From Chromobacterium sp. IIBBL 290-4 (lineage in GTDB: Bacteria > Pseudomonadota > Gammaproteobacteria > Burkholderiales > Chromobacteriaceae), in contig NZ_CP100128.1 of NCBI RefSeq assembly GCF_024207115.1, forward strand, positions 1,364,001 through 1,428,000: a stretch of DNA of 64,000 nucleotides. The letters run 5' to 3'. Position 1 is the first letter of the stretch; every line of letters starts with the position of its first letter. This document shows positions 6,888 to 51,766 of this stretch, piece by piece. The notes below the pieces were generated by a model. The model did no database searches. It was not told the origin of the DNA and worked only from the letters and a program-made list of their open reading frames with translations. The position numbers were made by a program, and so were the translations under genes.

Positions 6888-8276
6888 ATGTTCGCCCCTT
6901 CCGTCTACGCCCAGCGCCGCGCCGGCCTGAAACAAGCGGGTTTGTCCGGTTTGCTGCTGTTTGTCGGCAATGTCGATTCGCCGATGAACTACCACGACAA
7001 CATCCTGCCCTTCGTGCAGGACTCCAGCTTCCGCTATTTCTTCGGCCTGAACGAGCCGGGTCTGGCCGGCGTGATCGATGCCGAAAGCGGCGAAGCGGTG
7101 TTGTTCGGCAATGACCCGGATGTGGCGGACATCGTCTGGACCGGCCCCTTGCCGTCCTTGGCCGAACGCGCCGCGCAAGCCGCCGTGACGCGCAGCCGCC
7201 CTTACGCCGAACTGGCGCAGGCGCTGGCCGAAGCGCGCGCCTCCGGCCGCGCCGTCCATTACACCGCGCCGTATCGCGGCGAAACCATGATAGAGCTGGG
7301 CCGCCTGCTGGACGTCCATCCGGCCAAGGTGAAAGAAGGCTTCTCCGCCGCGCTGACCCGCGCCGTGGTGGCGCTGCGCGAAATCAAGGGCGCGGAAGAG
7401 ATCGCCGAGATGGAAGCCGCGCTAGGCGTGACCCACGCCATGCACATCGCCGCGATGCAAAACGCCAAGCCGGGCGTGGTGGAATACCAGGTGGTGGGCA
7501 TCATGGAAGGCATCATGCGCCGCCACGACTGGCAACTGGCCTACCCGTCCATCTTCTCCAAGCGCGGCGAAGTATTGCACAACCATCACCACGACCACGT
7601 GCTGCAACAGGGCGACCTGGTGCTGAACGACACCGGCTGTGCCAGCGGCGCCGGCTACGCCAGCGACATCACCCGCACCTTCCCGGTGGGCGGCAAGTTT
7701 TCCACCCGCCAGCGCGAGCTGTATGAAATCGTACTGGAAATGCAGGAAGCCGCCATCGCCGCCGTCAAGCCGGGCGTCAAGTATCAGGACATCCACAAGC
7801 TGTCCGCCGCCGTGATGGTGGAGCGGATGGCCGCGCTGGGCTTCTTTAACGGCGACGTGGACGCCATCGTCGAATCCGGCGCTTACGCCATCGCCTTCCC
7901 GCATGGCCTGGGCCACCAGATCGGCATGGACGTGCATGATATGGAAGCGCTGGGCGAAGACCTGGTGGGCTACGGCGACGACGCCGAGCGCAGCAAGCTG
8001 TTCGGCCTGGGCTATCTGCGCTTGGGCAAGACCCTGAAGGCCGGCATGGTGCTGACCGTGGAGCCGGGCGTTTACTTCATCCCGGCGCTGATCGAAGCCT
8101 GGGAAAAGGAAGGCCGCCACAGCCAGTACATCAACTTCGCCAAGTTCCGCGAATACGCCGACTTCGGCGGCATCCGCATCGAAGACAATGTGCTGGTGAC
8201 GGCGGACGGCAGCCGCGTGCTGGGCGAGCCGATTCCGAAAACCGTGGAAGAAGTGGAAGCCGTGATGGCGGTATAA
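6888..8276 (+). CDS. M24-family Xaa-Pro aminopeptidase (aminopeptidase P type)
   Basis: The 462-residue protein removes N-terminal residues in front of proline. All five metal ligands of the pita-bread fold are visible: D248 in LVLNDTG, D260 in YASDITRTFP, H343 in HGLGHQIGMDVHD, E392 in TVEPGVYF and E432 in GGIRIEDNVLV. The N-terminal 170 residues form the creatinase-type domain. It should be a cytoplasmic dimanganese enzyme. AAGGAG lies 7 bases before the ATG. It stands alone between a possible GntR-type operator and a strong terminator. Its sequence has an insertion before the last glutamate, so it is a divergent member rather than a standard PepP. Confidence 0.87.
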   Translation: MFAPSVYAQRRAGLKQAGLSGLLLFVGNVDSPMNYHDNILPFVQDSSFRYFFGLNEPGLAGVIDAESGEAVLFGNDPDVADIVWTGPLPSLAERAAQAAVTRSRPYAELAQALAEARASGRAVHYTAPYRGETMIELGRLLDVHPAKVKEGFSAALTRAVVALREIKGAEEIAEMEAALGVTHAMHIAAMQNAKPGVVEYQVVGIMEGIMRRHDWQLAYPSIFSKRGEVLHNHHHDHVLQQGDLVLNDTGCASGAGYASDITRTFPVGGKFSTRQRELYEIVLEMQEAAIAAVKPGVKYQDIHKLSAAVMVERMAALGFFNGDVDAIVESGAYAIAFPHGLGHQIGMDVHDMEALGEDLVGYGDDAERSKLFGLGYLRLGKTLKAGMVLTVEPGVYFIPALIEAWEKEGRHSQYINFAKFREYADFGGIRIEDNVLVTADGSRVLGEPIPKTVEEVEAVMAV

Positions 8277-8301
8277 GCCCGCCGCGCTTGGCCCCCAAAA
8301 G

Positions 8302-8332
8302 AAAACCCGCGCTGTTTTGGCGCGGGTTTTTT
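8302..8332 (+). terminator. Rho-independent terminator after the aminopeptidase gene
   Basis: An 11-bp perfect stem, AAAACCCGCGC paired with GCGCGGGTTTT, has a 7-base loop and runs into TTTTTT. It lies 26 bases after the stop codon. Confidence 0.9.
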
Positions 8333-8442
8333 CATGCCTGCAGCGCTTTCGCTTAGCTGTCCGATGGCTGGCGGCGCGGCTTTCCCTGCACGCTGATAAG
8401 CACATGAAAATTCATTATAAGTAATATATACATTAATTAAAT

Positions 8443-8458
8443 GCTAATGTCAATTAGC
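8443..8458. promoter_or_regulatory. Upstream inverted repeat of the alpha-oxoamine cluster
   Basis: GCTAATGTCAATTAGC has perfect 6-base arms around GTCA. It sits inside an AT-rich stretch (about 8400-8460) that differs sharply from the GC-rich surroundings and probably contains the promoter of the five-gene operon. Operator function is inferred. Confidence 0.4.
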
Positions 8459-8483
8459 CTACCGGACAGTAGCCTGAAAATGC

Positions 8484-8508
8484 CGAACGAATAGATATTT
8501 GTCGTTCG
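8484..8508. promoter_or_regulatory. Second inverted repeat before the alpha-oxoamine cluster
   Basis: Perfect 7-base arms CGAACGA and TCGTTCG are separated by 11 AT-rich bases, placing the half-sites 18 bases apart, nearly two helical turns. This suits a dimeric regulator. It lies 27 bases before the chosen start codon of the first gene. No regulator gene is encoded next to the cluster. Confidence 0.42.
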
Positions 8509-8535
8509 TACATTTCAACCTACATGGTGGCAGCC

Positions 8536-10083
8536 ATGACTGACATTTCGACGCCGGAGGCCTTGGCGGCTTTCAACAGAATCGCCGTGATCGGGGCGGG
8601 AACCATGGGGCGCGGCATCGCCTATCACTTCGCCTTGCAAGGCTTTGACACCCTGCTGATCAACCGCGGCGAAACCGGGCTGGCCGCCGCCCGCGAAACC
8701 ATCGCGCGCGACTTGGAAAAGAAAGTGGGCCAAGGCCGGCTGGCGGCGCAACAGGCCGCCGCCGTCCTGCAGCGGATCGCCTTCACCACCCGGCTGGCGG
8801 ACGCCGCCGACGCGGGCCTGATCATCGAAAGCGTCGCCGAGGACGCAGCGATCAAGACTGCCTTGCTCGCCGAACTATCCCGCCTCGCGGCGGCGGACGC
8901 CGTCATCGCCACCAATACTTCCTCGCTGTCCTTGAACAAGCTGGCCGCCGCGGTGGAACATCCGGCCCGCTTCATCGGCCTGCACTTTTTCAACCCGGCC
9001 CAGCTGATGAAGCTGGTGGAGATCATTCCCTCGTTTTTCACCGCCGACAGCGTGATCGCGCGCTGCCAGCGCCTGCTGGCGCAAAGCGGCAAAGCGACGG
9101 TGCGCTGCCAGGCCACGCCCGGCTTCATCGTCAACCGCATGGCCAGGCCGTTCTATCTGGAAAGCTTCCGCTTGCTGGAAGAGAACGTCGCCTCGGCGCG
9201 GCAGATCGACCGCGCGCTGAAGGCGACCGGGCTGTTCCGGATGGGGCCGCTGGAGCTGACCGATCTGATCGGCCAGGACATCAACTTCCAGGTCAGCACC
9301 CAGATCTGGCAGTCCTTGCAATTCGATGCCCGCTATACCCCCGTTTATCTGCAAGGCGCGCTGGTGGATGCCGGCCTGCTGGGCCGGAAAAACGGCCGCT
9401 CCTATTTCGCGGCCAGCGGCGATCCGGCGGAAACCGCAGCCGGCGCCGAAGACGCGCCGGACAGCCTGATCCTGTTCGGCCATGACCCGCTGGCGCGCCA
9501 GCTGGCCGAGGCGGTCCAGGCCCGCTGGCCCGCGGTCAGGCTTGAGCGCCGCGGCGACGACGCCGAGCTGGGCAGCCATCTGCTGGTGAACCAGGCCTTC
9601 ATCATCAAGGCCAGCGATGGCCGCACCGCCGCCCAGCTTGCCGCGGCGGCGGGACGCGATGTCTTCGTGGTGGACGTGTCGCTGGACTACGCCGCCGCCG
9701 ACTATCTCGTCGCCGCCCACAGCCCCGCGCCCGCGCCGGCGCATCTCGCGCTGTTCGGCGCCGCGCTGCGCGCGCTGGCCCCGGTCTTCGACTGGGTCAA
9801 GGACTCGCCCGGCCTTATCGTCGCCCGCGTGCTGTGCAGCCTGATCAATGAGTCGGTCGTCATGGTGGAGGGCGGCGTGTGCGCCAAGGCCGATATCCAG
9901 CTGGCCGCCACCAGCGGCGTCAATTACGCCAGCAGCCCCTACGACTGGCTGGACGCGCTGGGCGAGGCGCGCGCGCGGACGATACTCGGCCACCTGGCCA
10001 GCCAGCTGCACCCCTACCGTTACCGCCCTCATTACGCCTTGCAAAGAAACCCACCCCTCGCCGAACCGGCTGCGGCCGCTTGA
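8536..10083 (+). CDS. 3-hydroxyacyl-CoA dehydrogenase, PaaH-like
   Basis: The 515-residue protein catalyses NAD-dependent interconversion of 3-hydroxyacyl-CoA and 3-oxoacyl-CoA. It has a Rossmann motif VIGAGTMGRGIAYHF near the N-terminus. The catalytic block IGLHFFNPAQLMKLVEI contains the active-site histidine, and the C-terminal 3HCDH domain appears twice, as in PaaH. I chose ATG 8536, which has GGTGG five bases upstream; ATG 8524, four codons earlier, has no ribosome site. It is the first gene of a five-gene operon, followed by thiolase after 11 bases. With the hydratase at the end of the operon it could run beta-oxidation steps in either direction. Confidence 0.85.
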   Translation: MTDISTPEALAAFNRIAVIGAGTMGRGIAYHFALQGFDTLLINRGETGLAAARETIARDLEKKVGQGRLAAQQAAAVLQRIAFTTRLADAADAGLIIESVAEDAAIKTALLAELSRLAAADAVIATNTSSLSLNKLAAAVEHPARFIGLHFFNPAQLMKLVEIIPSFFTADSVIARCQRLLAQSGKATVRCQATPGFIVNRMARPFYLESFRLLEENVASARQIDRALKATGLFRMGPLELTDLIGQDINFQVSTQIWQSLQFDARYTPVYLQGALVDAGLLGRKNGRSYFAASGDPAETAAGAEDAPDSLILFGHDPLARQLAEAVQARWPAVRLERRGDDAELGSHLLVNQAFIIKASDGRTAAQLAAAAGRDVFVVDVSLDYAAADYLVAAHSPAPAPAHLALFGAALRALAPVFDWVKDSPGLIVARVLCSLINESVVMVEGGVCAKADIQLAATSGVNYASSPYDWLDALGEARARTILGHLASQLHPYRYRPHYALQRNPPLAEPAAAA

Positions 10084-46396: not shown

Positions 46397-47218
46397 ATGC
46401 TGAGCCTGCCTACCCTCACTCTGGCCGCCTTCGCGCTGCTGGCGCTGGGCCTGGTCGCTTCCAGCCTGCGCCAGGAAGCGCCGGGCTGGATCGCTCTGAT
46501 CACCAGCGCCATGCTGGCGCTCGCCTCCGGCCTGCTGCAGCCGGTGGGCGCGCTGGCGCTGCTTGCCGTCGCCAGCCTCACCGCCGCGCTGCGCCGTTAT
46601 CCCAGGCCGGAACTGTATCTGGTGTGGATCGCCGCGCTGCTGGCGCTGGCGCTGCATGCCTTGCCGGGCTTCGACAATCCCTTGCTGTGGCAGGGCAAGG
46701 CCAGCCTGGACAGCGCGCCCTATCGCTTGTTCTGGAGCTACGACAAAGGCTTGGCCGGGCTGATGCTGTTGCTGCATCTATGCCGCTCGCCGCAGCCGGA
46801 ACGCCGATTGGGCTGGCCGGCGGCGGCCGTCGGCGCCTTGTCCCTGCTGCTGGTGCTGGGCGTGGCCGCGCTGACCGGCATCATCGGCTTCGCGCCCAAA
46901 TTGACGGCCTGGCTGCCCGCCTGGCTGCTGGCCAATGTGTTCCTGGTGTCGCTGGTGGAGGAGGCCTTCTTCCGCGCCGGCGCGCAACGCTGGCTGGAGC
47001 TGCGCACCGAACCCTTCGCCGCGTTGATGGCGGCCTCCTTGCTGTTCGGCCTGGCGCATCTGGCCGGCGGCTGGGCCTGGGTGGGCTTGGCCACGCTAGC
47101 CGGCATAGGCTACGGCCTGATCTACGCCGCCCGCCGCCAATTGTGGCTGGCGGTGCTGGCGCATGCCGGTTTCAATCTGCTGCATCTATTGTTTTTCACC
47201 TATCCGAAACTGGCGTGA
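46397..47218 (+). CDS. CPBP-family intramembrane metalloprotease
   Basis: The 273-residue inner-membrane protein has about eight spans and the three CPBP (Abi, type II CAAX protease) motifs: E188-E189 with R193 in VEEAFFRAG, H221 in LLFGLAHLAGG, and H256 with N260 in LAHAGFN. These residues form the glutamate/histidine active site in the membrane. Targets are unknown in most bacteria. GGAG lies seven bases before ATG 46397; the longer open frame upstream is antisense-like and lacks a start signal. It is alone in its unit. Confidence 0.85.
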   Translation: MLSLPTLTLAAFALLALGLVASSLRQEAPGWIALITSAMLALASGLLQPVGALALLAVASLTAALRRYPRPELYLVWIAALLALALHALPGFDNPLLWQGKASLDSAPYRLFWSYDKGLAGLMLLLHLCRSPQPERRLGWPAAAVGALSLLLVLGVAALTGIIGFAPKLTAWLPAWLLANVFLVSLVEEAFFRAGAQRWLELRTEPFAALMAASLLFGLAHLAGGWAWVGLATLAGIGYGLIYAARRQLWLAVLAHAGFNLLHLLFFTYPKLA

Positions 47219-50666: not shown

Positions 50667-50691
50667 GCCTCATCAGTATCTTTCCCACTCC

Positions 50692-50713
50692 GCCGCCGGC
50701 TTCCGCTGGCGGC
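50692..50713 (+). terminator. Hairpin after purC
   Basis: GCCGCCGGC and GCTGGCGGC make a 9-bp stem with one G-T pair around TTCC. It has no T-run, so it may be a weak terminator or a 3'-end stabiliser. AT-rich DNA begins soon after it. Confidence 0.45.
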
Positions 50714-50775
50714 ATAGGGCCGACATCAGGCTCCTCCGCATCATGTCAATATACCAAGCATGACAATCGCAGCAA

Positions 50776-50802
50776 TTGCCATTTTGATTATGGCTTTATA
50801 AT
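50776..50802 (+). promoter_or_regulatory. Promoter candidate for the bacteriocin-like gene
   Basis: TTGCCA (50776-50781) and a perfect -10 TATAAT (50797-50802) are separated by 15 bases, slightly short of ideal. The leader would be about 75 bases, very AT-rich, ending in the ribosome site AAAGGAAA. Confidence 0.5.
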
Positions 50803-50883
50803 TACATCCAATTTACAAAAAACAACAGTTTATTCCATTGGGATTCTGATAGCATTTAAGCTCAATCAAAAAAGGAAATAATA

Positions 50884-51114
50884 ATGAATGAACTTAATTC
50901 AATGGAATTAGAGCAAATCTCTGCTGCAGGACGTGCGCCTGTAGAAGCTATCAAGCGTCTTGGCGCAGAAATTGGCATCGGCGTTGTATCTGGTATGGTT
51001 TGGGACGGTATCAAAGCGGCTGCGGGAGCAGCAGAGGGATGGCTAAATAACCAGAATGGCAACTATGACTCCAGCAGTTGCGCTAATGGCGGTTACTGTG
51101 GCGGCGCAAGGTAA
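50884..51114 (+). CDS. Bacteriocin-like peptide precursor with double-glycine-type leader
   Basis: The 76-residue product opens with MNELNSMELEQISAAG, matching the class II bacteriocin leader pattern (EL...EL..IS then a small-residue pair). Cleavage after A15-G16 would release a 60-residue peptide starting RAPVEAIKRL. The mature part is glycine- and alanine-rich, amphipathic, with overlapping GxxxG spacings (G27 to G37) as in pore-forming two-peptide bacteriocins. C66 and C72 near the end could form a disulphide. The ribosome site AAGGAAA is excellent. The AT-rich context differs from neighbours. A CPBP membrane gene follows, as in many immunity modules. No exporter is adjacent. Confidence 0.65.
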   Translation: MNELNSMELEQISAAGRAPVEAIKRLGAEIGIGVVSGMVWDGIKAAAGAAEGWLNNQNGNYDSSSCANGGYCGGAR

Positions 51115-51126
51115 TTAGGCGCGCAA

Positions 51127-51156
51127 GCCATTCGGCAGCAGCGGCTTCCGAATGGC
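51127..51156 (+). other. Hairpin between bacteriocin-like and CPBP genes
   Basis: GCCATTCGG and CCGAATGGC are perfect 9-base arms around a 12-base loop. It lies 12 bases after the peptide stop and 9 bases before the CPBP frame. With no long T-run it may act as a partial terminator or RNA-processing site, letting the peptide be made in excess of the second protein. Confidence 0.5.
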
Positions 51157-51164
51157 CTACTTTC

Positions 51165-51713
51165 GTGTATCCGAACAACAAAATTATGCCTTCTCAAATC
51201 CTGGCTTATTTACGTAAAGCCCATGATCGTCTTGCGCGTTGGCCAAGAGCAAACTTCTGCATCGCCTTAGCTGTTGGTAATTTTGTCTTGGTGGTGCTTT
51301 TTGCCATACCGATAGCCATATATGTCGGCTCAACCTATCCCAACCGCGTCGTTCCATTTCACACAGTATGGGATAGCGAGTGGTGGATGTATTTTCTTGA
51401 CTCGGTAATTATGGCGCCGCTGATAGAAACACTGCTGATTCAAGTCTTGTTTATCGAACTAGCTCTCCGCTGGCGGCTGAGTCTACGCTATCAATACGCA
51501 CTGTCAGTCGTCCCATTTTTTTTACCACATGCCCTACGCGCTTTTCCCTACGGTGTGATTTCTGGCATCTGTATGGGTTTTTCTCTTGCCTACTGTTATC
51601 TGCGCTGGCGCAAGCACTCTCGCCGCTCCGCATTCTGGAGCACGGTAACCACCCATGCGCTATACAACGCCTTGGTGATGGCATCATTGACCGCCTCCAT
51701 CACCATCGGCTAG
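51165..51713 (+). CDS. CPBP-family membrane protein, possible bacteriocin immunity
   Basis: The 182-residue protein has four or five membrane spans and reduced CPBP motifs: E88 in MAPLIETLLIQ (the second Glu is T and the Arg is Q), F118 and H122 in FFLPH, and H164 with N168 in THALYN. Catalytic Glu and both His are kept, so it may be active. CPBP proteins next to class II bacteriocins often give self-immunity. The start is unclear: GTG 51165 or ATG 51186, neither with a good ribosome site. Base composition is lower in GC than flanking genes. Confidence 0.65.
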   Translation: MYPNNKIMPSQILAYLRKAHDRLARWPRANFCIALAVGNFVLVVLFAIPIAIYVGSTYPNRVVPFHTVWDSEWWMYFLDSVIMAPLIETLLIQVLFIELALRWRLSLRYQYALSVVPFFLPHALRAFPYGVISGICMGFSLAYCYLRWRKHSRRSAFWSTVTTHALYNALVMASLTASITIG

Positions 51714-51734
51714 AAATGTCATCGACATTTTGAT
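51714..51734 (+). terminator. Possible terminator after the CPBP gene
   Basis: AAATGTC and GACATTT form a 7-bp stem around ATC directly after the stop codon, then TT. The stem is AT-rich and the tail is short. Confidence 0.4.
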
Positions 51735-51766
51735 AGCATTTTGCCCTTTGTCATAAAAACTGCGCC

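What the first reader, a model, noticed from the sequence alone, without database searches (positions are those of the whole stretch)
50667..51734. AT-rich cassette with bacteriocin-like peptide and CPBP protein
Seen: between purC and rimJ-like genes lies about 1 kb of clearly lower GC. It encodes a 76-residue peptide with a double-glycine-type leader (ending ISAAG), GxxxG spacings and two C-terminal cysteines, then a CPBP membrane protein with active-site Glu and His kept. Known: CPBP proteins next to class II bacteriocins provide immunity in Gram-positive bacteria. Inference: this is a compact toxin/immunity module in a betaproteobacterium, using a peptidase-exporter encoded elsewhere.
Basis: partly seen in the sequence, partly recalled or inferred. 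Interest (0 to 1): 0.75.

Follow-up and report, generated by a model that had tools for sequence, protein, structure and literature searches.

The report
Probable bacteriocin and membrane partner cassette
A one-kilobase foreign-looking DNA insert in a beta-proteobacterial chromosome carries a small secreted-looking peptide gene and a CPBP-like membrane protein gene, very probably an antibacterial peptide with its self-protection protein, and similar pairings occur twice more in this genome.

Summary
Window ~50714-51727 is an insertion absent from a close relative whose purC and rimJ-like genes lie about 125 bp apart; GC is 0.474 against 0.653. It encodes a 76-aa peptide with a GG-type leader and a 175-aa six-helix protein. 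Corrections: the leader's cleavage pair, in register, is AA followed by G, not GG/GA; and the protein is a divergent CPBP relative that keeps one Glu, FxxxH and HxxxN but has E-T-xxx-Q for EExxxR. The pairing is no accident: the same genome has two more peptide+CPBP modules, and a genome of another genus has peptide, CPBP, HlyD and C39 exporter in a row. The window genome has two C39 exporters with the catalytic triad (by eye); the one about 25 kb downstream is 72% identical to that linked exporter. Best reading: a class-II-microcin-like bacteriocin with a CPBP-type immunity protein, exported by a C39 transporter encoded elsewhere. Killing, immunity and export are inferred, not shown. In two of the four family loci with such a peptide the leader is stop-interrupted while the membrane-protein gene is intact. 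The kind is known from Gram-positives; this is a Gram-negative variant.

The parts
50714..51727 (.). inserted AT-rich cassette (limits approximate: bases between the local alignments to the empty site)
   Evidence: alignment with congener G017, where the purC and rimJ-like matches are 125 bp apart; GC 0.474 vs 0.653
50740..50883 (+). AT-rich upstream region, presumed promoter and ribosome-binding site of the peptide gene
   Evidence: aligns with the upstream region of module 2; the consensus scan found no sigma-70 site here, so promoter function is inference
50884..51114 (+). 76-aa precursor peptide with a GG-type leader
   Evidence: ORF; paralog in module 2, pS 0.55 vs pN 0.23 over the aligned C-terminal part; relative in G038
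50884..50928 (+). predicted 15-residue leader, cleavage pair AA with Gly at +1
   Evidence: register by comparison with G038 (SGA then G) and the L028 peptides (NGA then G; SGG then G); graspetide-like precursors of L015 have VGGA then G
50929..51111 (+). predicted 61-aa mature peptide: Gly-rich part and C-terminal S-S-C-x2-G-G-Y-C-G-G tail
   Evidence: invariant columns in three relatives; composition; low-confidence model with helices 9-30 and 32-57 of the precursor
51127..51156 (+). inverted repeat between the two genes
   Evidence: 13-nt arms, 92% complementary; fold z-score -2.94 for 51112-51186
51186..51713 (+). 175-aa six-helix divergent CPBP-like protein, presumed immunity protein
   Evidence: 46% identical to P0004 of module 2; 14 of 18 aligned sequences hit PF02517, this one not; AlphaFold2 mean pLDDT 88.8
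50836..50857 (+). left copy of an imperfect 22-nt direct repeat bracketing the two genes
   Evidence: 82% identity; a 16-nt core has no third match in the 64 kb at up to 3 mismatches; meaning unknown
51720..51741 (+). right copy of the same direct repeat, at the insert's right edge
   Evidence: a related sequence stands at the empty site

Best explanation
A horizontally acquired bacteriocin module. The peptide is made as a precursor, its GG-type leader is recognised and cut by a C39-peptidase ABC exporter encoded elsewhere in the chromosome (most likely the HlyD + C39 pair about 25 kb downstream), and the Gly-rich, probably partly helical mature peptide, perhaps closed by one disulfide near its C-terminus, acts on the envelope of susceptible relatives. 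The six-helix CPBP-like membrane protein made from the next gene protects the producer. Shown: the insertion, gene pairing, duplication, conservation, exporter presence and homology to the linked exporter. Inferred: processing, export, killing, disulfide and immunity.
For: Three peptide+CPBP modules in one genome; in the 18 congeners no CPBP relative at E up to 0.001 with the three-sequence profile and no peptide match below E 0.038. In G038, another genus of the family, the order is peptide, CPBP, HlyD (in pieces, by eye), intact C39 ABC exporter. The peptide's C-terminal S-S-C-x2-G-G-Y-C-G-G is invariant in the three relatives and pS exceeds pN in peptide and CPBP gene. The exporter 25 kb downstream is 72% identical to the G038 exporter and keeps Cys, His and Asp (by eye). 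Loci of CPBP relatives outside the family, mostly Bacteroidota, have strict-pattern leader peptides within 1 kb upstream in 5 of 20, against a background of 0.007 per kb. The second peptide of module 3 weakly resembles the lactococcin G-beta/enterocin 1071B family (E 0.0098, below cut-off).
Against: No activity data. The window peptide has AA at -2/-1. It has no credible match to any bacteriocin model and no hit but itself in a word-based search of 5.8 billion proteins. Four of 8 CPBP relatives in the family have no such peptide beside them that I could see. At two of the four loci with one, the leader is stop-interrupted. CPBP proteins beside bacteriocins can have other roles (SilX, passages of PMC9298176).
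Confidence: 0.72

Rival explanations
1. The CPBP-like protein is a processing enzyme for the peptide, or for a signalling peptide, rather than an immunity protein.
For: S. anginosus SilX, a CAAX protease with EExxxQ, seems to act in pheromone maturation and not in immunity (passages of PMC9298176). Glu81, FxxxH and HxxxN are invariant or nearly so in 18 and 27 aligned sequences, which suggests a kept site.
Against: The second Glu of the motif is Thr in all of these, so catalysis is doubtful. The leader resembles C39 substrates and C39 exporters are present. A 61-aa Gly-rich peptide with two cysteines is unlike a pheromone (general knowledge).
Confidence: 0.13
2. The peptide acts on its own population, as the Neisseria autolysis peptides do, with the CPBP protein as a brake.
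For: Neisseria Naps are GG-leader peptides on a horizontally acquired island, without detectable antimicrobial activity, that promote autolysis (passages of PMC11798529, part of the abstract among them).
Against: No NapP/NapF-like genes were seen in the cassette. Naps are cationic, this mature peptide has net charge 0. Several peptides in one genome (two related ones and a two-peptide set) fit competition at least as well.
Confidence: 0.08
3. A decaying remnant: the peptide is no longer processed or expressed and only the CPBP gene is kept, as immunity against other strains.
For: At two of the four family loci with such peptides the leader is stop-interrupted beside an intact CPBP gene; the window leader has AA at the cleavage pair.
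Against: The window peptide frame is intact, and pS exceeds pN between modules 1 and 2.
Confidence: 0.07

Closest known systems
CPBP/Abi (CAAX-type) immunity proteins of Gram-positive class II bacteriocin loci
   Same: multi-pass CPBP-type membrane protein encoded beside a GG-leader peptide; an immunity role is reported for some (as cited in passages of PMC9298176; the original papers were not read)
   Different: Gram-negative host; divergent motif E-T-xxx-Q; no Pfam match by itself; no exporter or regulator seen beside the pair
Class II microcins (MccV type)
   Same: GG-type leader, small Gly-rich core, C39 exporter plus HlyD in the genome, adjacent membrane protein within the size range given for immunity proteins (51-216 aa, passages of PMC9746304)
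   Different: cleavage pair AA rather than GG/GA; exporter about 25 kb away; no match to a bacteriocin model found; CPBP-type partner (the 2022 microcin survey has 0 occurrences of 'CPBP')
Moraxella catarrhalis McbC/McbI
   Same: Gram-negative double-glycine bacteriocin gene followed by its immunity gene, with an export pair (abstract of PMC2761928)
   Different: exporter genes adjacent; [quoted passage not shown]
Neisseria autolysis peptides (nap island)
   Same: horizontally acquired GG-leader peptides with a C39 peptidase and a presumed immunity protein (passages of PMC11798529)
   Different: cationic, own peptidase and FapF-like channel in the island, LagC-like immunity domain, no antimicrobial activity seen
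Two-peptide (class IIb) bacteriocins, lactococcin G type
   Same: module 3 has two GG-type peptides in a row with GxxxG, the second weakly matching NF038034 (E 0.0098, below cut-off)
   Different: the window module has one peptide with a Cys pair and no partner peptide

Membership tests
Class II microcin / unmodified GG-leader bacteriocin | leader ending in GG or GA cut by a C39 peptidase | tested here: not met
   window peptide has AA in register with Gly at +1; relatives have GA or GG at the same place. It is therefore said to work like, not filed as, a class II microcin
Class II microcin / unmodified GG-leader bacteriocin | C39-peptidase ABC exporter with Cys/His/Asp and an HlyD adaptor in the genome | tested here: met
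   triad judged by eye in the alignments
Class II microcin / unmodified GG-leader bacteriocin | TolC-type outer membrane channel | not tested
   an outer-membrane-factor-like ORF was only seen by eye in L018
Class II microcin / unmodified GG-leader bacteriocin | adjacent small membrane immunity protein | tested here: inconclusive
   175-aa, six-helix protein directly downstream; immunity itself not tested
Class II microcin / unmodified GG-leader bacteriocin | antibacterial activity | not testable with these tools
   needs bench assay
CPBP (Rce1-like, PF02517) | Pfam match of the protein itself | tested here: not met
   no Pfam hit at E up to 1; no PF02517 match at this place in the own-genome search at E up to 10
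CPBP (Rce1-like, PF02517) | homology to accepted members | tested here: met
   14 of 18 aligned sequences hit PF02517; the 9 other proteins found by profile search all carry PF02517
CPBP (Rce1-like, PF02517) | EExxxR motif | tested here: not met
   E-T-xxx-Q in all 18 aligned sequences
CPBP (Rce1-like, PF02517) | FxxxH and HxxxN motifs | tested here: met
   H115, H157, N161 invariant in both alignments; F111 at least 90% of 18 and all of 27
CPBP (Rce1-like, PF02517) | Rce1 fold | tested here: inconclusive
   good model; the fold comparison gave no decision
Neisseria nap-type autolysis island | C39 peptidase and FapF-type channel in the same island | tested here: not met
   I recognise only the two genes in the ~1-kb insert
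Graspetide precursor | ATP-grasp ligase beside the precursor | tested here: not met
   none in the insert or its immediate flanks; the MvdD-like ligases lie at the C39 loci

The most novel reading that the evidence does not exclude
A family of exporter-less bacteriocin cassettes in Gram-negative bacteria (GG-type peptide plus a divergent CPBP immunity protein) that spread as about 1-kb inserts and borrow the C39 exporter of resident graspetide clusters; in several copies the peptide has decayed while the immunity gene is kept.
Probability: 0.3. Interest if true: 0.65.

Novelty: new variant of a known kind. Interest (0 to 1): 0.5.

Why it matters
To my knowledge CPBP-type immunity is described mainly from Gram-positive bacteriocin loci. 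Here the same pairing appears in a beta-proteobacterium, three times in one genome, with a divergent CPBP clade some of whose relatives in Bacteroidota also sit beside GG-leader peptides. This gives a handle (the CPBP clade) for finding unmodified bacteriocins in Gram-negatives whose peptides are too short and diverged for sequence search, and a testable case of cassettes that use another cluster's exporter.

Tried and rejected
Protein database search with the peptide and with the CPBP protein: only themselves at E up to 1. Plasmid DNA search: no match. PDB by sequence: one chance-level hit; by fold: no CPBP/Rce1 entry among the rows shown, which is uninformative. Weak hits set aside as chance: NCBIfam YydJ exporter permease for the membrane protein (E 0.016, 15 of 270 bits), Pfam HetE-N for the peptide (E 0.2), PHROGs membrane protein for the peptide (E 0.03). 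Sigma-70 scan: 3 sites against 1.8 expected. Order-wide and class-wide peptide searches: only the own genome (1 of 399; 1 of 369; in many genomes only part of the first-look candidates was scored). The family search returns G038 as well (2 of 61), but G038 is a row of the query alignment, so that is not independent; the G038 peptide was first found by reading upstream of its CPBP gene. Graspetide identity for the window peptide: rejected (no ATP-grasp beside it). Chance ORF: rejected on duplication and conservation. The order search with the CPBP profile gave 36 matches in 31 of 399 genomes. I did not type them by Pfam; many keep an EExxR-like motif by eye and look like ordinary CPBP proteins. 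A loose pattern flags small ORFs in many of the 29 loci L066-L094 that I scanned; by eye I hold only those of L081 for clear GG-leader peptides and one in L088 for possible.

Full report
What is there. The window contains, between purC and the first of two tandem rimJ-like acetyltransferase genes, a 76-codon ORF at 50884-51114 and a membrane-protein ORF that starts at 51186 (ATG) or 51165 (GTG) and ends at 51713. GC drops to 0.474 over 50714-51727 against 0.653 for the rest of the window. PurC was found in all 19 genomes of the genus. Of the 18 others, 12 have the rimJ-like match 103-184 bp after the end of the PurC match, 5 have it at about 0.8-1.0 kb (in the three of these that I read, a 181-aa ORF lies between that looks like an isochorismatase by eye), and one has no rimJ-like match in the stretch fetched. 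G017 has purC, 125 bp, a rimJ-like gene 90% identical to the window's first, then the second one, and so gives the empty site: the local alignments stop at about 50713 and resume at about 51728, with 43 bp in G017 against about 1,014 bp here.

The peptide. In register with its relatives, the leader is MNELNSMELEQISAA followed by Gly: Glu at -8, Leu at -7, Ile at -4, Ala-Ala at -2/-1. G038 has SGA then G, and module 3 has NGA then G and SGG then G. The AA pair is unusual, as GG or GA is given as the rule for class II microcins (passages of PMC9746304). The predicted mature part has 61 residues, net charge 0, 21% Gly and GxxxG at five places. The model made without an alignment has two helices and a loose tail at low confidence (pLDDT 65.5). 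No Pfam or NCBIfam model supports it beyond chance at E up to 1, and the search of 5.8 billion proteins, which needs shared 5-residue words, returned only itself. The leader pattern alone is weak evidence: a fixed strict pattern matches 3 ORFs in the 64-kb window on both strands, this one included.

The membrane protein. It has six predicted helices with mean pLDDT 88.8. It does not hit PF02517 by itself, but 14 of the 18 aligned sequences do, and the 9 other proteins that a profile search brings up all carry PF02517, two of them named CPBP by a source. In all 18, P78, E81, T82, Q86, H115, G131, H157 and N161 are invariant; E81, T82, F111, H115, G131, H157 and N161 are invariant in 27. So EExxxR has become E-T-xxx-Q while FxxxH and HxxxN remain. 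An Arg-to-Gln change at the motif's end also occurs in S. anginosus SilX (passages of PMC9298176). Whether the protein cuts anything is open. The fold comparison was uninformative.

The pairing is repeated. Module 2 (about C1:4888716-4889590, minus strand, L014) has a CPBP paralog 46% identical (E 1.6e-41) and a peptide paralog with the same SSCANGGYCGGA tail; its leader is interrupted by an in-frame stop. Module 3 (L028) has two GG-type peptides at 7688-7837 and 7847-8017 followed by a 166-aa CPBP relative at 8097-8597. The second peptide weakly matches the lactococcin G-beta/enterocin 1071B model (E 0.0098, below the cut-off). In the 18 congeners held there is no CPBP relative at E up to 0.001 with the three-sequence profile and no match to the window peptide below E 0.038; the module 3 peptides were not searched for there. 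Between modules 1 and 2, pS is 0.55 and pN 0.23 for the aligned C-terminal part of the peptide, 0.67 and 0.35 for the CPBP gene, which points to constraint for at least part of the time since they split.

Relatives. The CPBP profile of the three finds 8 proteins in 5 of 61 genomes of the family. Four of the 8 have a peptide of this kind beside them: the own three and G038. G040 (two proteins), G055 and G056 do not, as far as I could see. In G038 (L062, minus strand) the order is peptide (leader interrupted by a stop), CPBP, HlyD (in separate open frames, apparently broken, by eye), then an intact 727-aa C39 ABC exporter, with a phage-type integrase nearby. Outside the family a genome-contig scan returned 20 loci, mostly Flavobacterium and other Bacteroidota. 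With a strict leader pattern, 5 of 20 have such a peptide within 1 kb upstream on the same strand, 6 of 20 counting downstream; the background from the same loci is 2 matches in 280,902 strand-bases, about 0.14 expected in 20 kb. In two loci (L050, L059) the CPBP start was assumed and in two (L053, L059) less than 1 kb lies upstream; one of the five peptides (L056) is only 28 aa long. The loci are related to one another, so this is not 20 independent trials. A looser pattern finds more, with more chance matches.

The exporter. Five C39 (PF03412) matches exist in the genome. Two, L015 and L016, are full ABC exporters with HlyD-like partners and, by eye, the catalytic Cys, His and Asp; by eye L017 and L018 lack the Cys, and L019 is a weak match (26 bits). 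Both full exporters lie beside MvdD-like ATP-grasp ligases (TIGR04184, E 9.5e-114 and 2e-104, below the curated cut-off), i.e. graspetide-type clusters. Of four apparent precursors there, three have leaders with VGGA then G and one has VGGG; none hit a family where tested (two of the four). The L015 exporter, about 25 kb downstream of the cassette, is 72% identical to the G038 exporter; that of L016 is 51% identical to it. L015 is therefore the best candidate for exporting the peptide, by inference.

Between the genes. An inverted repeat separates peptide and CPBP genes in the window; fold z-scores of the intergenic stretch are -2.94 (window), -5.75 (module 3), -2.16 (G038) and -0.02 (module 2). 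It could set the ratio of the two products; that is not shown.

Mechanism and rivals. I take this to be a bacteriocin with a CPBP-type immunity protein, exported by a C39 transporter in trans (0.72). The main rivals are CPBP as processing enzyme (0.13), self-acting peptides like the Neisseria Naps, which showed no antimicrobial activity and promote autolysis (passages of PMC11798529) (0.08), and a remnant kept for its immunity gene (0.07). The interrupted leaders beside intact CPBP genes (2 of 4 loci) fit immunity kept after loss of the toxin, but four cases are few.

Novelty. Searches of the held papers for CPBP with bacteriocin, immunity and double-glycine, with class II microcin, Abi/CAAX with bacteriocin self-immunity, Chromobacterium with bacteriocin and microcin (the genus name is my guess, no call names it), two-peptide and Gram-negative, Neisseria with double-glycine bacteriocins, CAAX protease with microcin and CPBP with Bacteroidetes listed no paper that, from titles and abstract starts, describes CPBP immunity in a proteobacterial bacteriocin. 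I saw only the top of the longer lists. A Treponema paper mentions a CPBP-annotated 91-aa miniprotein and GG-type leaders (passages of PMC9200625), a different thing. Subscription papers and preprints are not held, so this is no proof of absence. The kind (GG-leader peptide plus CPBP) is known from Gram-positives; the new points are the host, the divergent CPBP clade, the threefold occurrence and the likely use of another cluster's exporter.

Noticed in passing
L015 2960-9657 and L016 4005-9236 (own genome C1 about 1.437-1.444 Mb and 0.517-0.522 Mb): Two graspetide-like clusters: MvdD-family-like ATP-grasp ligase, HlyD-like protein and C39 exporter, with small precursors containing a F-x-x-FLE-like leader motif and, in most, repeated T-x-x-(V/I)GEE-like cores (read by eye).
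   Followed up: partly
L016 9663-10028 (-): A 121-aa ORF with a leader ending FISGG upstream of the L016 exporter genes; no NCBIfam match.
   Followed up: no
window 50836-50857 and 51720-51741: Imperfect 22-nt direct repeat (82%) that brackets the two-gene module; a 16-nt core of it has no other match in the 64 kb at up to 3 mismatches. Insertion trace, promoter similarity or chance, undecided.
   Followed up: partly
L014 9811-10053 (-) and L028 8737-8979 (-): Transposase fragments (IS110-like and IS3-like, NCBIfam matches far below cut-off; an integrase-core Pfam match over cut-off for the second) beside modules 2 and 3.
   Followed up: partly
L061 4460-7336: G040 has two CPBP relatives flanking an ORF that looks like a MutS-type ATPase by eye; no GG peptide seen there.
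   Followed up: no
L081 513-1899: Two ORFs with leaders ending IAGG and ISGG directly upstream of a 317-aa CPBP-like protein in another family of the order.
   Followed up: no
window 46907-47182: A conventional PF02517 (CPBP) match (66.8 bits) inside a long open frame about 4 kb upstream of the cassette.
   Followed up: no
purC-rimJ-like interval in 5 congeners (L107-L111): A different 0.8-1.0 kb stretch lies at the same interval; in the three read (L107, L108, L111) it holds a 181-aa ORF resembling isochorismatases by eye, so the site may take up inserts repeatedly.
   Followed up: partly
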